From contig CP136066.1 of NCBI GenBank assembly GCA_032622095.1, positions 94,447,319 through 94,511,318 on the forward strand: DNA of 64,000 nucleotides, in the 5' to 3' direction. The position numbers were made by a program, and so were the translations under genes. The stretch is from Siphonodentalium dalli. Its lineage: Eukaryota; Mollusca; Scaphopoda; Gadilida; Siphonodentaliidae. Below, one piece after another: positions 46,001 to 60,425 of this stretch. Position 1 is the first letter of the stretch. Every line of letters begins with the position of its first letter. The notes beneath the pieces are model-generated. The model saw only the letters and a program-made list of their open reading frames with translations. It had not been told where the DNA came from and made no database searches.

Positions 46001-46656
46001 AATTAGCAATAAAGAACGTTTAATATCAACTTAAAAGATATATTTATCCGGAGAGAAATGCAATAGGCATGTGATAATCCCTACTGTCCAGATTGTACCT
46101 AACCAGCTGACACGCCCTATGCGTATGTGTATATGTCTCGAAGCCTAATCAACGTGTCTGGTGTCAAGCGGGATCCGACATGTCGCTTTAAGTTTAAGGG
46201 GTCGTGCCGGATTTCGACTGTCAAAATTGTGAGCCTCAAATATCCATCATGTACAACATTCAAACAATAATTCATGTCGACAACCACGTCCATAGAAAAC
46301 TTTATATTATAACCACTTCATATTATAACCACTTCATTCTATAACCATCGTTCTTATAAAATTCAATTCGGTTAAGCGGGTGCCTGCATCTCTCGATATA
46401 TATTATTAGGTATATATAATATAATTGTCGGCGGTTCCAAACAACTTAACATGACACGTCTGATCCAAAAAGATAATTATCAGGAGTCGGCAGTTAAATA
46501 TATCAATAAATATATCAATTTTCGCACACCATAAGACATACATTAATAATCTATGCACAATACCAGCGACATGCTTATCGGCAAGACACACATACATACT
46601 ATTCGTTGAAGGGTTGACAGGAAGACGGCCTTAAACAAAGGCCATGTCAATCCTGG

Positions 46657-46720
<64 letters not shown>

Positions 46721-48669
46721 ATGTTTGTAACATTATTTAATCTGTATAGAATTCTGACCAATAAACTATCTATCTAGGTGCTGTTTACCCAAGTTGAATA
46801 ATAATTATTTAAAATGACTTGAAGGGCCACCGACAAATTACGCATTTTACACACGAGAAACGCTGGGTATACCCCAGATAGTATTTAATATAAATCCATA
46901 TAGATATACGTTATATACTATTATATGGACTTTATGTGTCGCCCAAATTTAATTCATAGAGTCGGGACCCGACTTTTAGCTCTTCGGCATGGCAAAATAA
47001 AAAGCGTTCCTTATTAGTCTATTCCTTATGTGGAAAAATAAAGAGCGCTTGTCTCACTTCTGAGCGAAACTGCATGTCAGTACATGTATTTCGTGTATTT
47101 TATTACCCTTTTTTTTTAACTCTTATAACATAGATATAGTTTATGGCATTGGTTCAAATGAGCCATGTCCGAGCTATGGTCTGCCGCGAGTTAGTTCTTG
47201 GTTGCTTTTACGGAAAATGTCAAATAGGCTATATACAACAATGAAAAACAACGAACATGTTGGAAATCTATATATATATATGTAAAACATCCCCAAATAT
47301 TACTGGGTTCGAGCACCCTATATAACAGAAATAAATTTCATTGTTTATTGTCAATTGAAAATTAGAGCCTTCATAAAAGGGTAAGCCCATTTATAAAAAC
47401 TATCTTTAAAAAGTATACCGCACATATAGATGTTACATTGCATTACAATATAATTTTTATGTGTATTGTAATTGATATATATGTTATGGCTTTCTTGTGT
47501 ATATTATGTTTATATGTTCTTGCATGTTCCAACTTAAAGTGATGCGAAACACTCCGGTAGAGCGATAAATAGAAATAGAGAATAATCTTGCATAAAATTA
47601 AGAACACACCCTCCTTCGATAGTTGCGTCCCGAATCGAGAAGTAAATATTTACAATTCAGAGCAGTTCAGATATTTTCCATGGAGTTCTACGGTCGATTT
47701 GCTTTAAATTTTCGTAGAATGCTGCATTTCCATCAGGTGGCACAGTAACTGATCAGTTTCACGCACAGAACAAGTCCATAATATATCTGGGCTTTTCTAA
47801 CAACCAAAACAAACAAACAATGAGCTTAAAGATGCGCGAACGCGTCTGAGCCGACAAACGAAAAAAATAAAAATAATTTTTTTTTTTTTTTACCCAAAGC
47901 AAGGTTCAAAACAGAACAACATTGAATGAGTCATTCGATGTCAATACAGTAGATGTATAATGTGACGCAAATTATGGGGGTTAACGAACGCATCAAATTC
48001 AAGTACATCAGAGTATTTTGTTGGTCGAATATGAACATCAGAGTATATAGGTCAACATGAAAACGCAGATACGGCCAGATGTGGAGGCTATATAGAGGGC
48101 CCGATAGATAATGCTGGACACGGGCCCATTGATCAAGTCTATTGACAATGCCATTATTTCTTGATATTTAAGTGGACACTGCGTCCATTGTGTTATCGCC
48201 ATAATGGAGTTCTTTGATTTTAATCGAATACGAGCGGGGTCCAGATTTTGAACGATCCACTTGTCCAAGGAGCGTTGGAGCGCTTATGTTTAATTCATCG
48301 TCAGCACTCGATGTCACTCGAATAAAAGTCTCTCTGATTATCTACTCGCATCCTGATTGGCTGCCAACACCCTCTCCGAACCACAATGCTCGTGTCCGTG
48401 TAGTTCCAGATTTTTTACCTATACTCCCGCCGAGGCCCCATTGTATTGGCACATGCAGATGGTAAGGTTCATGATACATTAGACAAACATATAAAGCACA
48501 CGCCAGTCGACATATAAGACGGAATCTCATCACAATAGCACAATCTTACACCATAACTATCACCATACACTTGTTCTTTCCATTTACATATATATGTTTG
48601 TGTAGTTATGACCGTTCATGAAGAATCACGAAGTTTCTAACGTGTGACTTCCATTATACCAGTCGAAGT
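46001..48669. other. mostly unassigned AT-rich sequence
   Basis: Has a three-unit 16-base tandem (TATTATAACCACTTCA, 46304-46348), the (TA)n at 46661, an A/T-run cluster at 47860-47892, and AATAAAGAGCGCTT at 47037 (a relative of the family M 12-mer). No gene is supported. Confidence 0.45.
46661..46718. repeat. (TA)n microsatellite
   Basis: About 29 consecutive AT dinucleotides, followed by CTATGTTTGTAACATTATTTAATC and, at about 46762, AATAAACTATCTATCTA. The latter resembles the (TATC) tail of the LINE family seen at 41542 and could be a separate 3' end relic. Confidence 0.85.
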
Positions 48670-50696: not shown

Positions 50697-52184
50697 CACA
50701 CGTTACCGAATATAAAAATGATTCCACACGAATACTATTTGGTTTATAACATGCATAAAACGCACTAATTGTTAGTCCATCGACTTTATACGAACGATAT
50801 CTGAGTTTCTCGAAATGCATAAGCGTGGATGCACTGGAACGTCTGAATGTCGCCGAATATGATGGTTTGTTTTAAGCATGTAACATACGTTACCATATGT
50901 TTTGAATATCTCACTGAGGTCGAGTGAGATTAGTTATTTGTTATAGATGGCTCTTCTATCTGATCGGAAAAATATCAAAATTTCGTTCTAAAACAGTATG
51001 TGACTGTTACCGTTACCGGCTAAAATATTTATTTTTAAAAAACCAAGATATCTCACTGTATGGCAATAATAACGCGAGTTTAGGACACCGGTGATCCAAA
51101 TATGTGAGTAACTGTCTGCTAGTATGATAATTAATGAGGTTATGATTAATCGTGTGCGATACACGTGATTCTTTGAAAATATCCCCTTTGATTATCGCGA
51201 TGTGTAGGGATCTTGACATTTCCGTGAACTTATTGAGCCGCTCTTACAGGAAAATACGAATGGGATATATTGGCTGTTTTGTAATGTCTGCAAAGCAAAA
51301 TAGCAGTTTGCTAACCAATAATGGTTTCCGGGGGACGTACGATTAAAGTTAAACAATATATTCCATAATTATGTTGCATTTTAAACTCCACTGAGAATGC
51401 GCCAGGTGACCATGCGATTTGAGTAATCACCCTTGTTCAACTATAACTTTGACTTCCATTATTATGACTATTACCCCCTATATAACTGTCTTCAATATAT
51501 AACGGTTCTGATAATTTAAAGCCGATAATTATATATGTCTGCAGTAAATACACGGACCACTCACTGACACTAACTGAAATTATATGCATGACTCATGTCA
51601 TGATCGAAGTTGACGGGCATAACTTGGAGATGCATACATGTAAGACACCAGGCTGGGAATAATATATATGGAAGGGCAAATTGGCCATGGGCATTTGTGG
51701 TAACCATCAATATGTTACCAGTGACTTAACTCAATCGAAAATATATGTTTTGACATTTAAGTTTGGTATAATATTTAAAAATATATCAGCTGAAATATGT
51801 TTGGTTTGCATACTGTATATAATATTCGCAAACATCGAAATGGATGGATGTCTAGATTTCTAATTGCTTACTGTAGATATAATTAAGGCAACAACAAAAA
51901 TGTCTGCTCGCCATTCTTCTCTACATGTATATAACTAATGTGATATCCCACCGCAGATATCATATACCTGGAAACCCGACAGCCACCGTCGAAAACGAAA
52001 CCATTGAAAACGTTACTTTAATCATTGACAAGCACATCATTATTCCGCTGTACTGTCGGTCATAGCTAGGCATAACTATACATTGGCAGTATTCGTAAGC
52101 CATGCACGTGTTTAAAACACGAGGCCGTGTAACTGTATGCATGCAGGTCCAGCAATGGGTAGCACTCAATTCGCACTCAATATA
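50697..52184. other. unassigned flank of the 52-57 kb element
   Basis: Contains GTAACATACGTTACCAT at 50880 and GTAACACACGTTACCG at 50693, matched on the far side of the element at 57286 and (inverted) 57677. Otherwise no repeats or genes recognised. Confidence 0.45.
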
Positions 52185-52825
52185 CCAGTGCAATCATTCT
52201 CGATAGGAATATTAGTGTGGTCGTGGGAGAGTTGAACCCGGAAGAAATTGGATACAAGCTGATTTTGGTGTCATTCGAAGCGGAAAAACACCAGGAACAA
52301 CATATCCAAAATCCGCAAAAATCCGCTCATGGGAAAATTCAGGATCCAAGATGGCGTCCAATATGGCTAACACAATACGTAAATTTCCCATTTGTGCCCA
52401 ATAACACATGAAACCTCAGTAATTGTGGAAAATTACGCACCAAAACATATTCCACATTGAAAGTAACACATGTCAGAAAACGCATACTGTCAAGCTTGTT
52501 GTCTTTGGGGGCAGATGGCTATCAATATGGCCGCTGAATTCGGGAAAATTATAATTTTTAAGTGTATACAAATATTCTTCTAATAAAAATGTCTATTATT
52601 AGCATATCCTACATTTCAATAAAAGCAGTTTTGGTACATTTTGACGCAGAAAGGAACCGAGACCAACATATAAATTTATTTTAAAAATAGCACAAGCAGT
52701 CAGGATACAAGATGGCGTCCAATATGGCGGTCAAATGATGATATTTCGAGTCAGTGCCCATTAGCACGCAAACTCCGGGTTATATGGAAACTATTTAACC
52801 AAAACGGAAGCTACATTGACTTAGT
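52185..52825. repeat. left inverted arm, two tandem monomers
   Basis: Monomer 1 starts around 52230 and monomer 2 around 52590. Shared landmarks are TTTGGT-TCATT (52266, 52630), CAAGATGGCGTCCAATATGG (52347 and 52708, spacing 361), GTGCCCAATAACAC / GTGCCCATTAGCAC (52396, 52755) and ACCAAAAC-GAAGCTACATT (52440, 52799). The pseudogene ends inside or just at the inner edge of this arm. Confidence 0.75.
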
Positions 52826-55800
52826 CATGATACAGATGATACATAAATGTCCTTCTCGCGTTGTGCAATTGCTATACATCGTGAGAATAGCACAGTCGGG
52901 TTGAATTGCATTCGATCATTCTCGACTCTGATCCCAGGATATAAATGGTCAAGAGATTTTATTTGATCCTTCCGCTTGATCGAGGCATCTGTGATACTCA
53001 TGCCGTTAAGGTTTTTGTGAATCTCGAAACCGACACGTTCAGAGTCAATACAGTTAACACTGTCCCCATCACTAGATGTTAACCCAGACGACAGGGAGCG
53101 TAGTTTACCTTCACTCAAATCAAAAGGTTCATGTTCGTCAAACCAACGTTGTATGATTATCAAATCATCAGAGTCACGTTTGCTCCTACTTGCCCCGAAC
53201 TCCGCGTGCTGTTCACTGGTGGTATGTCTAAGTTTGGTTAATTCGGTCATGGCATCATGAATCTCGGCACACCTATGCATGCTATATATCCATTGCATTC
53301 GGACATATTCGGTCATTCCCCTACCTCTTGTCATACCTCCTCTGCTTTTGATAGAACGCATAAGGACTTGTTCTATTTATGAGATCTGTTGATAATCCTG
53401 CCCATAATCTATTGCTTCTACGTACAGCATGAAACCCATTTTCGGCGAAACATTTGTACAGCCAAGGGTGTTTATTAGGTAGTTCCAACATTTGCTGTAG
53501 ATAGAGTCGACAGTTCTTGGCATAGTTGGCGTGACCGATAGCGGCAAATAGATTGAGCATTTTCCCCATAGTAGCGATATGCAGACTCCAATTTCCTGTC
53601 CTCTCTGCTCTAATGAAATTCTTCAACGTTTGCACATATTCCAAATACTGAACCCACAACTTTGCTGTCGGAGATTTCTCAATAAGCAACGATTTATACT
53701 TGTTCAAACATTCCTCGAGTTTCATCAATGGTTGAGACCCAGAAACAGCACTTGCAGGAATTACTCTACTTTCAATAGATTTGTAAAAATCACTTATTGC
53801 GTTCATCTCATCCTTCTCGATTCTAGGTATTGTTTTTTCTTCAGACTGATTTATAGCTACTGTGGAATCAGGCGAAGCATCGAGCACCTTCTCATTCTGC
53901 ACTGTTCGGCCACCACATGGGCTTGTCGGACTTGTACTTGTTTCTGTAGATGGCACAATGTCTGAGATCAGCTTATTTGTAAGAGCAGCATCAATTAAGA
54001 AATGTCCACGCACTGCCCTTGATATTGCCTTCCCAGAAGTCATATGCGTAACTGCGTTAGGGCGATAGACATTCTCCAGAGCCTCTTCCAAACCCGAACC
54101 CTTCATTAGTGAACCAATACTACCCATGGAACTCATAATGGTATGAAAGCCACCCAGCCTGCAGACTATATTCAGGGACTTTGTCATTATAATATTCGTG
54201 GCCTTTATCCACAATGGCTGATCAAATGTGGTACATGGTGTCAGGATGTTTAGTTTGGTCGCTTGACCCTGAACATAAAGGAGAGTTGAATATATACAAT
54301 CCTCATCGGACGGATTCAAATCTATAATCGGCAAAAACAGAACATCAGACTTCGTTGGGCACTTCTGGTCATCAGTCGTAATATATTGCATGAAGCCCGA
54401 CCAATTTGTCCGAGGCTTTGTAGATTGGTTCACAAACCACCCTGAATGCCACAGTAGATCAGTGTTGAGCTCTGTTGGGGGCAATGGGTGTGGAGTAATC
54501 AGTTGAAGCAAAGGTTTGTAAGACAACGATGAAAGGCCTTTACCGGGAGAATCAACATAATGGCATATCTGGACCCCTTTACCTCGAACTAGCTCATCAA
54601 CCTTCGAACGCTGGCACCTGTTAATGGTGTGTGGCCTGAGTAGAGATTGCTATCATACACATACCATGGAATGTTCCCTGACCATCTAAAGTTGCTATGT
54701 TATGGTCTACATTGTCGGCAACCCACTGTGTACATGTTCCGGAGAAATAGTCGGTTAGAATATCGTCAGGACGTTCGGTTTGGATGACAGACTGTTTGTA
54801 TCTTTCTACTTCGTCGTGTGTAATGGAGAACCCCAACCTAGATAACTCATTCACCAACCATTTTGAACCGAACATGTGATCCATCTCCACACCGAAACAA
54901 AAGAGCGTTGGTGTTATAACAGATCGGGGTCGAGCAGATTTAATTATGGAGTCCCCAATGCTATTTATCTTCAAATCGGATAGAATCAGAACACTTAACA
55001 TCGTGTGCAAATAATGCGGAACCCACTGTCGACCCCGTTCAATGGAAGATATATCTTCACTGGTTGAATTAGTGTCATACAGTCTCTCTTATTTCTGCTC
55101 GTAATGTCCTTGCTGCTGTCAACATTATCCTTTCAGTTTCCTCTTCAATACTATCTCTCTTATCACAGTACCATTTTTCGTTTATGATAAACTTTGCCAT
55201 GTTCCGAAAACACACTATATTGTTCCGTCCCTCAACTTCGGCGAAAAATATAAACTCCCCGTAGTGGTCCTGCAGTTTCTCTTTGAGCCATTTCATACTA
55301 TACACATGACAATCACCCGCAAACTCAATCATTTTGTCATGCAACTCCCCAGAGTATATAATTCTGCACCAGCTTCGAGCCAACTACAAACCATCTCAAA
55401 CCATTGCTGCATTCCCTGGTCCGATCTCCTTCCACTTTTCGCCTTATCGACCAATATTGGATTTTCTTTACCCTACTGGAAATCAGTATAACAGCGTGAG
55501 TGGTAGACAGATTATGCTGCTACCAAGTCTATACAACCATACAAACGATCCTGCACATCGGATGCCCATTTGGTCCCACTTTTATCACAATTTTAGGATA
55601 TTGTCCCGAATTGGGAGGGTTGTTACTTGCCTCACCCCTGATTTGTCGGGATGTCGAGGATCTATAGTGGAAGGCGTACCACAAAACATACAGTCTGTCT
55701 TGAAATCAAACGGTGACACACCAGATCTCAGTTGTTTATTTGGAGGTACTTCGGTAGTTATTTCGACAGAACGGTGTCGCCTTTTTGGATCTGTGAAATC

Positions 55801-56031
55801 TCTACGACAATTCGAATGGACAAGAACTTTACCGACTGGTGTCATCTGATAGCGCTCATTCAGATAATCTTTCAGGTCGTGCCTCCCACATTTATCACAG
55901 AAATTGATCAATGTCAAAATGCCTTTCTTAGACACGATGACGGGAGGTTTGTCATCAAAACCCGATGGGCACAAAACACACATGTCATCCCGAAATTGCG
56001 TAATTTCTTGCGCCTCGCAAAATTCTGCCAT
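52825..56031 (-). pseudogene. large two-zinc-module protein of unknown function, broken
   Basis: Starting at ATG 56031, about 1,070 codons follow in one direction through five successive frames. Shifts lie near 55588, 55350, 55078, 54628 and 53370, with stops at 55512-55514 and 55473-55475. Residues 18-75 hold C-x2-C ... H-x2-C (CVLC, HSNC). A second module starts at residue 114 (CMFC) and its H-x2-C lies past the first shift. Later conserved blocks are FFAEVEGRNNIVCFRNMA, SKWLVNELSRLGFSI, WVADNVDHN, FDQPLWIKA, NIVCRLGGFH, GSGLEEAL, SGKAISRAVRGHFL and MRSIKSRGGMTRGRGMTE. I recall this series from many uncharacterised mollusc and cnidarian proteins. Function is unknown. The C-terminus stops abruptly at the left arm, where family members continue in my recollection. 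The frame-by-frame decay means it is not expressed as a whole protein. Confidence 0.75.
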
Positions 56032-56314
56032 AACTATATATTCAATACAAGACCAACTGATATATGGACTGACACTACATTTAAATGATAGAAATATAGA
56101 ATATGTATAGTAACAGGTCTCCTGTGTGCCTTGGCACCGTTAGGTTTCAACAGGAGAAAAGTTATAAGCCTTCAATCCAGTGGTTTGCAAATCAAAGTAT
56201 TACTACTTGGACATACACAGCCGGAATGATACAATACAAGCAACGAAGCTATATGCGAAAAAGCAGCCGATAGGCGAGACCTTTTATGTGCATCTGTGAG
56301 AACAAGCATATAGT

Positions 56315-56437
56315 ACGTGTTCTGTTATAAACGCTCTTTATATTCTGTTCTGTTCTGTTATATACACGCTCTTTATGACATTTCCTGGAAGGGTATAGCA
56401 AAACACGTGTTCTGTAGCAAACGCTCTTTATTGTTGA
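56315..56437 (+). repeat. short tandem block with AACGCTCTTTAT motifs
   Basis: The units GTGTTCTGTTATAAACGCTC-TTTAT (56318), GTTATATACACGCTCTTTAT (56356) and GTGTTCTGTAGCAAACGCTC-TTTAT (56407) repeat upstream of the pseudogene start, between it and the right arm. The same 12-mer occurs twice in each family M copy at 57843-58127 and 60131-60425. It may be a promoter-proximal element or just repeat debris. Confidence 0.55.
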
Positions 56438-56624
56438 ACGAACCGACATTGCCAGCCAGCTAATATATATATCAGTGATACACATAAACTTGGTTTATTC
56501 GCTGTATGGACTTACAAATCGCAGTTATAGTAAATTATATAGACACATTAAGCACATAAATTCGTCAATGTTCATAACTGGTTGAATAAATTGATAAAAA
56601 CGGCATTTGAGAGTCAAACATGTG

Positions 56625-57182
56625 TTGTATTTCAAAGTGCTCTGAAATCCCTGTCCATGTGCGGATTTTGGCAAATTGTGGATATGTTGTTTCTGTGGCT
56701 TTATCGGTTAGATTGATACCAAATTTAACATGTATTCCAGAAAATATGACATCCCAATATAATTGACTGTTGTCTTAGACAAATATATACTTGAAAATTA
56801 TAATTTTCTCGAATTTGGCTGTTATATTAACAGAAGTATGTCCCAATTGACAACAAAATTGTTTATATATTTTTTATAATGTTCTAACATATGTTACTAT
56901 CAATGTGGAATCCGTTTTGGTGAGATTTTTCCATATTCACTGAGGGTTTGTGTGTCAATGTGCGTTGACTGGAAAATTATTCATTTGGCGGCCATCTTTT
57001 ACGCCATCTTGGATCCTGAATTTTCCCATGAGCGGATTTTTGGATATGTTGTTCCTGAAGCTTTTCCCCGTCGAATGACACCAAAATCAGCTTGTATCCA
57101 ATTTCTTCCGGGTTGACCCCCAAATTCAGCTTCAACGACCATACTATATATACAGGACTTCCTATAGAGATATGATACAGTG
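56625..57182. repeat. right inverted arm, two tandem monomers
   Basis: Read on the minus strand, monomer 1 starts near 57115 (CCCGGAAGAAATTGGATACA) and monomer 2 near 56740 (AATTTGGTATCAATC ... AACAACATATCCACAA). Their offset of about 365 matches the left arm. Blocks GAAAATTATAATTTT-AAGT (56795) and ATTCCACATTGA-AGTAACA (56895) are shared with 52543 and 52450. Confidence 0.75.
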
Positions 57183-57842
57183 CTAATCTTAATGCAAATG
57201 AATTTATATGCTGCATTTGTCGACGTTGGCCATAAAACTGAATATGTTATTTGCTTCTGGTATTGTATTATAGTGATGTTTCAGTTTGTAACATACGTTA
57301 CCATGGTATGTGTGTGACGGCAGCTTAATTTTGGAAGAAGAATCCGCGAATAAATCGATTTCTCATTGTTACTTGAAAGAATGAATCTTCGAATATACCG
57401 TGGAAGAAAACATTTGGCACAAAACATACATATGACCAAATGAAAGGAAACGAATTATGAAGAAATAAAATAGGCTACGTAATTATTAGAAAATGTATGC
57501 AATTATTACTTTGTATAGCGTTTTGATCCTAACCATGTGTAACCGTGTATGCTTGTCACTTAATTATGTTTTGATTTTCTGGCTGCTGCCCATCTTACAG
57601 AATTCATATGAGGGAAATGTGATACCATTAAATGGTTCAATATCGATGTAAACCACCCCCTACCGATGTGTTTCACTGGTAACGTATGTTACAATAGGGA
57701 AAACACGATTTTTCATCATACTTACCAGGTACCATAGTAATGTACTCGAAAGAGCAATGATGACAATATTACACATTTAGTTTCAGCATAACTCTTGTTT
57801 GCATACACGAACAATATTGAACGATACTGTTGATTGAGAATG

Positions 57843-58127
57843 AACGCTCTTTATTATTTCCATATCAGGAAAACAGTAACAAAAAACGCTCTTTATGTTT
57901 ACCATATCCGGATCTAAACAAAAGCCAGGTTCTGTAACGTTTTTTGCTTTTGTTTACATAACAAAGGAAAATCATTTGACAATATATACTGTTTATGCCA
58001 TATTTCTGATTGGTATAAGAACAAATTCTGTCTATATTTTACTATTATTTCAGTTTATGACGGTTTTTGACGGAGGTGAACTATTTTAACAGCATACACA
58101 CCGCCAACGCCGTCCGTATCTTTAAAT
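57843..58127 (+). mobile_element. family M repeat, plus copy
   Basis: It contains AACGCTCTTTAT twice (57843, 57886), TTTGCTTTTGTTTACATAAC, ATACTGTTTATGC-ATATTTCT, TCTGTCTATATTTT, GACGGTTTTTGACGG and CACCGCCAACGCCGTCCGTA, ending TCTTTAAAT. An inverted partner is at 60131-60425, and diverged copies are at 24172-24400 and 28977-29182. About 285 bp, non-coding. Confidence 0.75.
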
Positions 58128-58224
58128 TAAGACTAACATATATTGCTGAATTTATTGTTAAATATATACATGTACTATAATATGCATGCAAATATTATAT
58201 ACTAATCACAATATTAATCACAGT

Positions 58225-58665
58225 ATTAAAGATGCATAATCGGATTAAGCGCCCCTCACTTACTATTTATTCGGATGCGGGGGCAAAATATATTTGATTC
58301 GAGTCGAGGAACCCACCTATCAAATCTCAAAGTTATTAGATATAAATTTTTGAAATCTATTATTTTTCACGATCGATGCTTATTAGGACCAGTAAAAAGT
58401 CGATGAGCGGACGGTCTCGGACCAACTTGCGGATGAAGATGGATAAATCTAAAATCAAGAGGCTTTGTGTTGATCATAAGGCCAAATTTCGTCGAACAAC
58501 GTGTTGATAAATAACACGTTTCGGGCAATTTTATACTATAGATTACAGTGGTTAGCATTATTTTGGGCAATTAATCGATTCTGATAACCGAAGCGGCATT
58601 TCTAAAAATGTTGTTATTGGAATCTGATTATATGGGGACCATCGAATTGGATTGGGTACCTTTAA
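58225..58665 (+). mobile_element. family A repeat, full length
   Basis: It runs from TTAAAGATGCATAATCGG to GGGTACCTTTAA with all standard blocks (GATTCGAGTCGAGGAACCC, GATGAAGATGGATAAATC, GTTGATAAATAACACG). It is followed 200 bp later by another copy in the same orientation. Confidence 0.75.
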
Positions 58666-58864
58666 TGTTACAGTATTGACGCCATATGTCACACGCATAC
58701 GGCCATGTTCTGCCGGGGAAGGTAACCTGCTTCGTGTATCTGGTCAAGTTTTTCAGTTGATTACATGCTTTTTAATACTAAATTTGCTTTTTGTGAAATA
58801 ACGTTGTTATGGTTGTTGTCACCGAAATGTTATATGTTAAACTGTTATAACAGTTTCATAACAG

Positions 58865-59334
58865 TTTAAAGATGCATAATCTGAATAAACGCTCACAAAT
58901 TACTATTTCTTTGGCTTCGGTGGTAAAATATATATGATTCTAGTCGAGGAACCCACCCATCAAAGCTCAGAGTGATTAGATATAAATTTTTTAAATCTAT
59001 TATTTTCCACCACGGGTACTTTTAGTGGCCTAGATAATAGTCGACGAGAAGACGGCCTCGGACCAAATTGCGGATGAAGATGGATAACTCTAAAATCAAG
59101 TGGTAATACGGCCAATTCTCTTGATAATTAAGTGATAATACTGTCACATTTCGTTGAACAACATGTTGATAAATAACACGTTTTGGGAAATTGTATACCA
59201 TAGTTGACAGTAACTGTTGTTATCATTATTTTGTTTAATTAATCGATTCTGATAACTAAAGCGTATTTTGAAGAAATGTTGTTGTTGTAACTTGATGATA
59301 TGGGAACCGTCTGACCAGGACTAAGTACCTTTAA
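58865..59334 (+). mobile_element. family A repeat, full length
   Basis: It runs from TTTAAAGATGCATAATCTG to AAGTACCTTTAA. Compared with 58225 it keeps the longer middle (TGATAATTAAGTGATAATACTG). The pair and the flanking inverted family M copies make 57.8-60.4 kb a composite block. Confidence 0.75.
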
Positions 59335-60130
59335 CTAATATGCTATAATATGCAGTTTATTATAAACTTATAACATTTTAGCATATTACAATTCGATGAC
59401 GCTAATACACAGCTGTATGTGTTCCAATTCATTTTAAATGCTATGTTTTTTATTTTATACTTCTGTATCAATATATATTTCAGGGGATAGATCTCGCTAC
59501 AACATCTGTAGGTTACTGTGAAGTAATTCGATTGGCTGCGCCCTCCAACGGATATTGGGCCAAGATACAGGAGAGAATTAGACAATTCTGGGCTCTGGTT
59601 GGTTAATAGTAGTTTTGATATTTAAACATATAATCACTCACTCTTGAATTTGCAGACGCCAAACAAAACATAGGAATAATAATCATTGTAAAGCACGTGG
59701 TTCCTTGTTTGAATTTGTTCGGTGTGAGGTAAACAATATTTTTTCATGCAATTCTGATTATAAATTATTATAAATCCGAAATGTAAAGGTTTTTGATTTT
59801 TTTTTTCATGCAGAAACTTTGCGCAGATGCTAATCCTGGTGATCATGTACTCATTTATCACAATTCGTGGATGCCCAGGGCTGAAGGCCATTATATGTTA
59901 ACACTGAGGCCTTTGGGAAATATTTACTTCACTGTAACCTATAATGTAATGATCTAAGAACATGTTGAATATCTGAGCAGCACAGATACTCCGTCAGAAG
60001 AAACTAAATAAGTAGAATTACGCCCCTTACATCAGCATAATCCGTTAAAAGGAGATATGGAGATGAGGCTCGATCATATATTTTACTGACAACGCGGAAC
60101 TACTCTATAACTTTTACAGGACCAATTTTG

Positions 60131-60425
60131 TTTTAAAGGTACGGTTGGCCTTGGCGGTGGGTATCCTGTGAAAATATTTCCAACCGTCAAAAACCGCCAC
60201 AAACAGAAAGAACATCAAAATATAGACAGACTGTGTCCGTATACAAATAAGAAATATCGCATAAACAGTATGTTATTGTCATATTGTTGACCATTGTTAT
60301 GTAAACAAAAGCATAAAAAGTTACTTTTCTGGTGTTTGTTTATATTATGATGGTAAACATAAAGAGCGTTCTTTGTGGGTGATTCCTGATATGGAACTAA
60401 TAAAGAGCGTTTATGCCATTTGTGT
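60131..60425 (-). mobile_element. family M repeat, minus copy
   Basis: The reverse complement carries AACGCTCTTTAT and GAACGCTCTTTAT, GCTTTTGTTTACATAACAAT, ATACTGTTTATGCGATATTTCT, TCTGTCTATATTTTGATG, GGCGGTTTTTGACGG and CCGTACCTTTAA. It aligns along its length with 57843-58127. Confidence 0.75.

What the first reader, a model, noticed from the sequence alone, without database searches (positions are those of the whole stretch)
52185..57182. Possible undescribed transposon: long tandem-monomer TIRs around an orphan zinc-module gene
The sequence shows ~560-640 bp inverted arms, each made of two ~361-365 bp monomers, on both sides of one large gene. The gene belongs to a multicopy family with no known function that I recall from molluscs and cnidarians. 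Being enclosed by long TIRs would explain its high copy number and suggests it is the element's own transposase or a cargo gene. Subterminal tandem repeats inside TIRs are the usual place for transposase binding.
Basis: partly seen in the sequence, partly recalled or inferred. Interest (0 to 1): 0.9.

Follow-up and report, generated by a model that had tools for sequence, protein, structure and literature searches.

The report
Truncated Academ-type DNA transposon copy
The stretch is one broken copy of a cut-and-paste DNA transposon found in hundreds of places in this animal-like genome; the puzzling gene inside it is most likely the transposon's own transposase, and the whole thing probably belongs to an already named transposon superfamily.

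Summary
The element is real and is a transposon copy: 52213-57146 (4934 bp), not 52185-57182, termini TAGTRTGGTCG, 3-bp target duplication (TAT). 11 of 11 distinct insertions with both ends readable carry 3-bp duplications. The joined flanks match 40 of 40 scored places without the element, i.e. empty sites. Arm-gene-arm layout recurs. The inverted arms are real; the tandem-monomer claim holds partly. Longer copies encode about 1500 residues: Cys/His modules, an invariant D/D/E candidate triad, motifs in the order of XPG/FEN nucleases, and a Cys-rich tail. The window copy lacks 1505 bp coding the nuclease-like part and tail; the same junction occurs in 14 of 30 gene loci, so a non-autonomous form spread. 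The 3-bp duplication plus a nuclease fits AcademX of the Academ superfamily (PMC10045372, passages read). No Academ sequence was at hand; profile searches and the one structure job gave no support, so the placement is probable, not proven. Verdict: probably a new family of a known kind, modest interest.

The parts
52210..52212 (.). left copy of 3-bp target site duplication (TAT)
   Evidence: flanks GAATAT|element|TATATA; six of six fetched empty sites carry the triplet once
57147..57149 (.). right copy of 3-bp target site duplication (TAT)
52213..57146 (-). transposon copy, 4934 bp, internally deleted (gene on minus strand)
52213..52568 (+). left terminal inverted repeat (outer unit L1), terminus TAGTGTGGTCG
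56784..57146 (-). right terminal inverted repeat (outer unit R1), terminus TAGTATGGTCG
52574..52848 (+). degenerate inner unit L2 of the left arm (recognisable chiefly at 52700-52819)
56655..56735 (-). recognisable part of degenerate inner unit R2 of the right arm
52847..52848 (.). deletion junction: 1505 bp present in the L049/L011/L050 copy are missing here (coding for the XPG-like part and Cys tail, plus 3' end)
55585..56031 (-). gene fragment 1: start (ATG 56031-56029) and Cys/His modules
55075..55383 (-). gene fragment 2
54621..55088 (-). gene fragment 3, carries candidate first catalytic Asp (NVDHN)
53321..54649 (-). gene fragment 4 (442 codons), carries candidate second Asp (TFDQPLW) and Glu (RAERTGNW)
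52825..53376 (-). gene fragment 5, ends early just after the deletion junction

Best explanation
A non-autonomous, internally deleted copy of a DDE-type cut-and-paste DNA transposon, most likely of the AcademX lineage of the Academ superfamily. Longer relatives (about 6.1-6.5 kb) carry a frame of about 1500 codons without introns: two Cys/His modules, a putative RNase H-like transposase core (D/D/E), an XPG/FEN-like nuclease part and a Cys-rich tail. Inferred working: the protein binds subterminal motifs in the arms (a stretch like AACATATCCAAAATCCGC starting 87-97 bp from the window's ends, recognisable in the L047 and L048 copies too), excises the element and joins it to a new site with a 3-bp stagger; the nuclease may process flanking or intermediate DNA. 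The window copy and its sisters lost the nuclease-like part in one deletion and were then moved in trans by full-length copies. Shown: element boundaries, 3-bp duplication, empty sites, recurring layout, shared deletion junction. Inferred: catalytic roles, binding site, trans-mobilisation, superfamily.
For: 3-bp duplications in 11 of 11 distinct insertions with both ends readable (window, L002/L043, L005/L042, L004/L045, L008/L046, L032/L041, the L011 copy, the L047 copy, L053, L054, L055; L006/L044 is a segmental duplicate and not counted; the L048 copy was dropped because its right end could not be defined). Joined window flanks match 40 of 40 scored places (123 candidates) across the junction at 91-97% identity; 6 of 6 fetched ones show the site without element and with one TAT. 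Left terminus in 466 and right terminus in 291 places at up to 3 mismatches, reversed-pattern control 0. The divergent L047 copy (58% protein identity) has the same termini and a 3-bp duplication. Codon positions 1/2/3 differ at 142/88/254 of 417 codons between L011 and L047 copies, i.e. past selection on the protein. Candidate D, D, E each present in 33 of 33 loci. Acidic motifs of the C-terminal part invariant in three subfamilies with steps of 39, 70, 2, 22, 2 and 59 residues, against 52, 72, 2, 19, 2 and 52 in FEN1 (FEN1 positions recalled); across 11-12 loci most of these acids are kept, three of the seven with one exception each. PMC10045372 (passages read): AcademX makes 3 or 4 bp duplications and encodes a nuclease. 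PMC10294476 (passages read): curated bivalve Academ elements average 5565 bp.
Against: No Academ sequence was available, so homology to Academ transposases is untested. Pfam gives no match above a curated cut-off to any part, XPG included; the best sub-threshold match of the C-terminal part is to an isomerase family (LacAB_rpiB, E 0.0021, 18.5 bits against a cut-off of 24.7), with a PIN-like NYN family at E 0.066. PDB sequence searches give nothing. Profile comparison with XPG/EXO1/FEN1 segments has probability 0.3%, although the GCD motif falls in register. Structure prediction failed. The paper that defines AcademX is not held. Another passage read ascribes a RecQ helicase to Academ (PMC3627910), so accessory enzymes vary within the superfamily.
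Confidence: 0.8

Rival explanations
1. A DDE transposon of a superfamily not yet described, which combines a transposase with a PIN/XPG-like nuclease independently of Academ.
For: No match above cut-off in Pfam, none in PDB, only a chance-level one in NCBIfam; no Academ sequence could be compared.
Against: The combination of 3-bp duplication and nuclease is what is reported for AcademX, and the length fits Academ. Pfam lacks an Academ model as far as I recall, so a blank there is expected.
Confidence: 0.12
2. A member of another superfamily with about 3-bp duplications (Harbinger, EnSpm/CACTA, Zator).
For: 3-bp duplications in 11 of 11 insertions.
Against: Termini are TAGTRTGG, not CACT(A/G); duplications include TGA, ATG and TTC, not TWA only; no transposase Pfam model matches. 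The signatures of these superfamilies are recalled. Zator was not tested separately.
Confidence: 0.05
3. A host gene family that happens to be flanked by an unrelated foldback repeat, or a captured cargo gene.
Against: The same gene at the same place in the other copies; the two gene-less pairs opened (L053, L055) are degraded versions of the same element with gene remnants; termini and gene recur together in the L047 copy at 58% protein identity.
Confidence: 0.03

Closest known systems
AcademX lineage of the Academ DNA transposon superfamily (Kapitonov and Jurka 2010; Kojima 2020, Mob DNA 11:15; neither read, known through passages of PMC10045372 and PMC4455052)
   Same: 3-bp target duplication; an additional nuclease(-like) part; total length in the Academ range; multicopy
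AcademH
   Same: Same superfamily, accessory enzyme beside the transposase
   Different: 9 or 10 bp duplications and a helicase (PMC10045372 passage); here 3 bp and nuclease-like motifs
KolobokP (PMC9587614, passages read)
   Same: Animal DNA transposon with transposase plus a nuclease, unusual terminal repeats, and short duplications (3-4 or 4-5 bp in the passage)
   Different: Long terminal direct repeats with 11-18 bp TIRs, termini 5'-RR, a His-Me finger nuclease; here long inverted repeats, termini 5'-TA and XPG-like motifs

Membership tests
Academ / AcademX | 3- or 4-bp target site duplication | tested here: met
   11 of 11 distinct insertions 3 bp; feature taken from PMC10045372 passage
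Academ / AcademX | nuclease encoded by the element | tested here: inconclusive
   XPG-like motif order invariant in 3 subfamilies but no profile support; absent from the window copy by deletion. That AcademX's nuclease is of XPG type is recalled; the passage says 'nuclease'
Academ / AcademX | DDE transposase core | tested here: inconclusive
   Candidate D/D/E in 33 of 33 loci; usable fold not obtained
Academ / AcademX | sequence homology to Academ transposases | not testable with these tools
   No Repbase sequences at hand; Pfam and NCBIfam without match above cut-off
AcademH | 9-10 bp duplication and helicase | tested here: not met
   3 bp in 11 of 11; no helicase Pfam match
EnSpm/CACTA | CACTA/G-type termini (recalled) | tested here: not met
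   Termini TAGTRTGG
PIF/Harbinger | TWA target preference and DDE_Tnp_4-type transposase (recalled) | tested here: not met
   Duplications include TGA, ATG and TTC; no such Pfam match
Kolobok / KolobokP | termini 5'-RR and YY-3' (PMC9587614 passage) | tested here: not met
   Termini 5'-TA

The most novel reading that the evidence does not exclude
A separate, undescribed transposon superfamily in which one protein fuses a transposase with an XPG/FEN-like nuclease, and whose nuclease-less deletion form, arising once, became a main spreading form, implying that the nuclease can be supplied in trans or is dispensable for joining.
Probability: 0.12. Interest if true: 0.65.

Novelty: new member of a known kind. 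Interest (0 to 1): 0.3.

Why it matters
It turns a recurring 'uncharacterised, multicopy, zinc-module' gene into a probable transposase annotation, so such genes should be masked rather than counted as host genes. It also gives a natural data set (longer copies, one recurrent deletion of the nuclease-like part, empty sites) for asking what the accessory nuclease of such elements does.

Tried and rejected
Host gene beside a chance foldback: rejected by recurrence of arm-gene-arm and by remnants in the two gene-less pairs opened. Relatives in viral contigs: two scans gave 1 and 22 pattern matches, none confirmed as a relative. Profile search of the nuclease-like part against Pfam, PDB, PHROGs and XPG/EXO1/FEN1 segments: no usable support. 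Conserved tandem units as a trait of the whole group: not supported, self-comparison of the L047 copy shows one 108-bp inverted match and no such units. Selection within the subfamily: median dN/dS 0.91 among nuclease-less copies, 0.87 among longer copies, 0.75 between the two, 1.46 among six young nuclease-less copies that I picked (that script stopped with an error after these lines, and the between-subfamily part was redone as codon-position counts). Structure of the central part: mean pLDDT 35.5, so no fold search was made. Genome-wide count of the AACGCTCTTTAT motif: five requests unanswered.

Known weaknesses: the genome search scores only the best 40 (DNA) or 99 (protein) candidates, so counts are lower bounds and lean towards copies like the window's. 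The gene list holds 59 of the 102 matches (divergent matches and second pieces dropped), that holds 75. Terminus searches printed 100 of 466 left places; the printed right places were used likewise out of 291. Sizes are 1 bp short and two right ends serve two left ends each. In one search the printed GENE column for right arms is empty through a strand slip; the final tally line uses the right test. Some of the 30 gene loci are duplicates of one insertion (L016 and L017 share their flank), and several cover only part of the deletable stretch.
Full report
Setting. The window lies in a 2.23-Gb genome held as 9 contigs (G000:C6:94447319-94511318). The source was not named and I did not identify it.

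Observation. Inverted arms flank a minus-strand gene. The outer units match strongly (261 of 322 aligned bases; score 279, shuffle maximum 32). Inner units about 361-371 bp further in are degenerate: four of five comparisons involving them exceed the shuffle maxima, one (L2-R2) does not. The first-stage ends lie 28 and 36 bp too far out.

Boundaries. Searches with each arm show that most scored copies stop at or within a few bases of window 52213 and 57146. Immediately outside lies a 3-bp repeat: TAT (window), ATA, TGA, ATG, ATA, TTC, and in longer, shortened or divergent copies TTA, TAT, TAA, ATA, TAA: 11 of 11 distinct insertions. The window copy sits inside another repeat family: its joined flanks match 40 of 40 scored places across the junction, and six fetched ones align without any element and with one copy of the duplicated triplet. 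This is direct evidence of insertion.

Copy number and layout. The left terminus occurs in 466 places and the right in 291 (up to 3 mismatches; reversed-pattern control 0). Of 40 scored left arms 32 have the gene within 4 kb in the expected orientation and 22 a scored right arm; of 40 right arms 32 have the gene; of 59 same-subfamily gene matches 46 have at least one scored arm and 18 both. Of 100 printed left ends 41 have a listed gene match within 4.5 kb; 54 pair with a printed right end within 12 kb, 34 of these with a listed gene match between; 21 pairs measure 4.88-4.97 kb, 8 measure 6.2-6.7 kb and 4 measure 3.82-3.86 kb.

The gene. In the window it is broken into five frames. The L011 copy carries it in two frames (351 and 1212 codons); the L047 and L048 copies carry single open frames of 1510 and 1575 codons, 58% and 56% identical to the window piece searched; the last few residues of the L047 frame depart from the others. 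Order of parts: two Cys/His modules, a central region with Asp in NVDHN, Asp in TFDQPLW and Glu in RAERTG[ND]W, each present in 33 of 33 loci examined, then [VI][VI]DGG, V[FS]DGY, KDHEH, [GS]DADT, ADDTD, GCDTT and, in the L011 and L048 copies, a full Cys-rich tail. In the L048 protein the triad lies at 455, 625 and 854 and the nuclease-like motifs at 1157-1351. Among 11-12 loci that keep the nuclease-like part, most of the seven acids are unchanged; three have one exception each. The motif order and spacing follow FEN1/XPG nucleases (FEN1 positions recalled), and the GCD motif aligned in register with EXO1 in a profile comparison that was otherwise not significant (probability 0.3%). No Pfam match reached its cut-off, and NCBIfam and PDB gave nothing of note; a sub-threshold match to an isomerase family over part of the nuclease-like stretch (E 0.0021) speaks neither for nor clearly against. 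Between the L011 and L047 copies third codon positions change most (254 of 417 against 88 at second positions), so the frame was under selection.

The deletion. The window copy is 96% identical to the L011 copy except for one missing stretch of 1505 bp (L011-copy positions 798-2302) that codes the nuclease-like part and Cys tail. Exactly this junction occurs in 14 of 30 gene loci L009-L038; 6 more share its inner side with a changed outer side, 9 keep most of the part of the stretch that the locus covers, 1 has another deletion. One deletion followed by spread is the simplest account. Six close copies of this form that I picked have median dS 0.007 and show no constraint. So these copies most likely moved with proteins made elsewhere.

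Mechanism. Best supported: cut-and-paste transposition by a D/D/E transposase with a 3-bp staggered strand transfer. A stretch like AACATATCCAAAATCCGC starts 87 and 97 bp from the window's two ends and is recognisable, with small changes, in the L047 and L048 copies; I infer it to be a binding site. The role of the nuclease-like part is inferred only.

Placement. PMC10045372 (passages read) states that AcademX makes 3 or 4 bp duplications and AcademH 9 or 10 bp, and relates this to the nuclease and helicase they encode. PMC10294476 (passages read) reports Academ elements of mean 5565 bp and an expansion in bivalves. The element fits AcademX on duplication length, size and, by motif, nuclease. 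The defining papers are not held. Searches for AcademX, or for Academ with XPG or nuclease, gave listings in which only PMC10045372 holds the word AcademX; the other listed papers were read in passages or not at all. Without Academ sequences the placement stays probable.

Verdict. A well-supported transposon, a probable new family of a known superfamily, with an instructive nuclease-less derivative. Interest 0.3.

Noticed in passing
46009-46020, 46997-47049, 56330-56431, 57843-57896, 60359-60411: A 12-base motif AACGCTCTTTAT occurs 10 times (up to 1 mismatch) in the window against 0.44 expected, largest of 100 shuffles 2. It lies upstream of this transposon's gene, is found in 15 of 67 loci (many do not cover that place), the divergent L047 copy among them, and in both arms of a neighbouring element; it may be a cis-regulatory motif shared by unrelated mobile elements.
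   Followed up: partly
57840-60414: A second inverted-repeat element of about 2.57 kb (arms 57840-58073 and 60184-60414) with internal direct repeats 640-668 bp apart at 58226-59311.
   Followed up: no
52013-52212 and 57150-57349: The transposon is nested in another repeat family with at least 40 copies at 91-97% identity; that family was not identified.
   Followed up: partly
L048 and further matches on C3 and C8: Three matches of a divergent subfamily have the same score and an uninterrupted 1575-codon frame, which suggests recent movement.
   Followed up: no
L049/L050 outer ends: The longer L011 copy is inserted in a GATATCACAAAAT-type minisatellite present on both sides.
   Followed up: no
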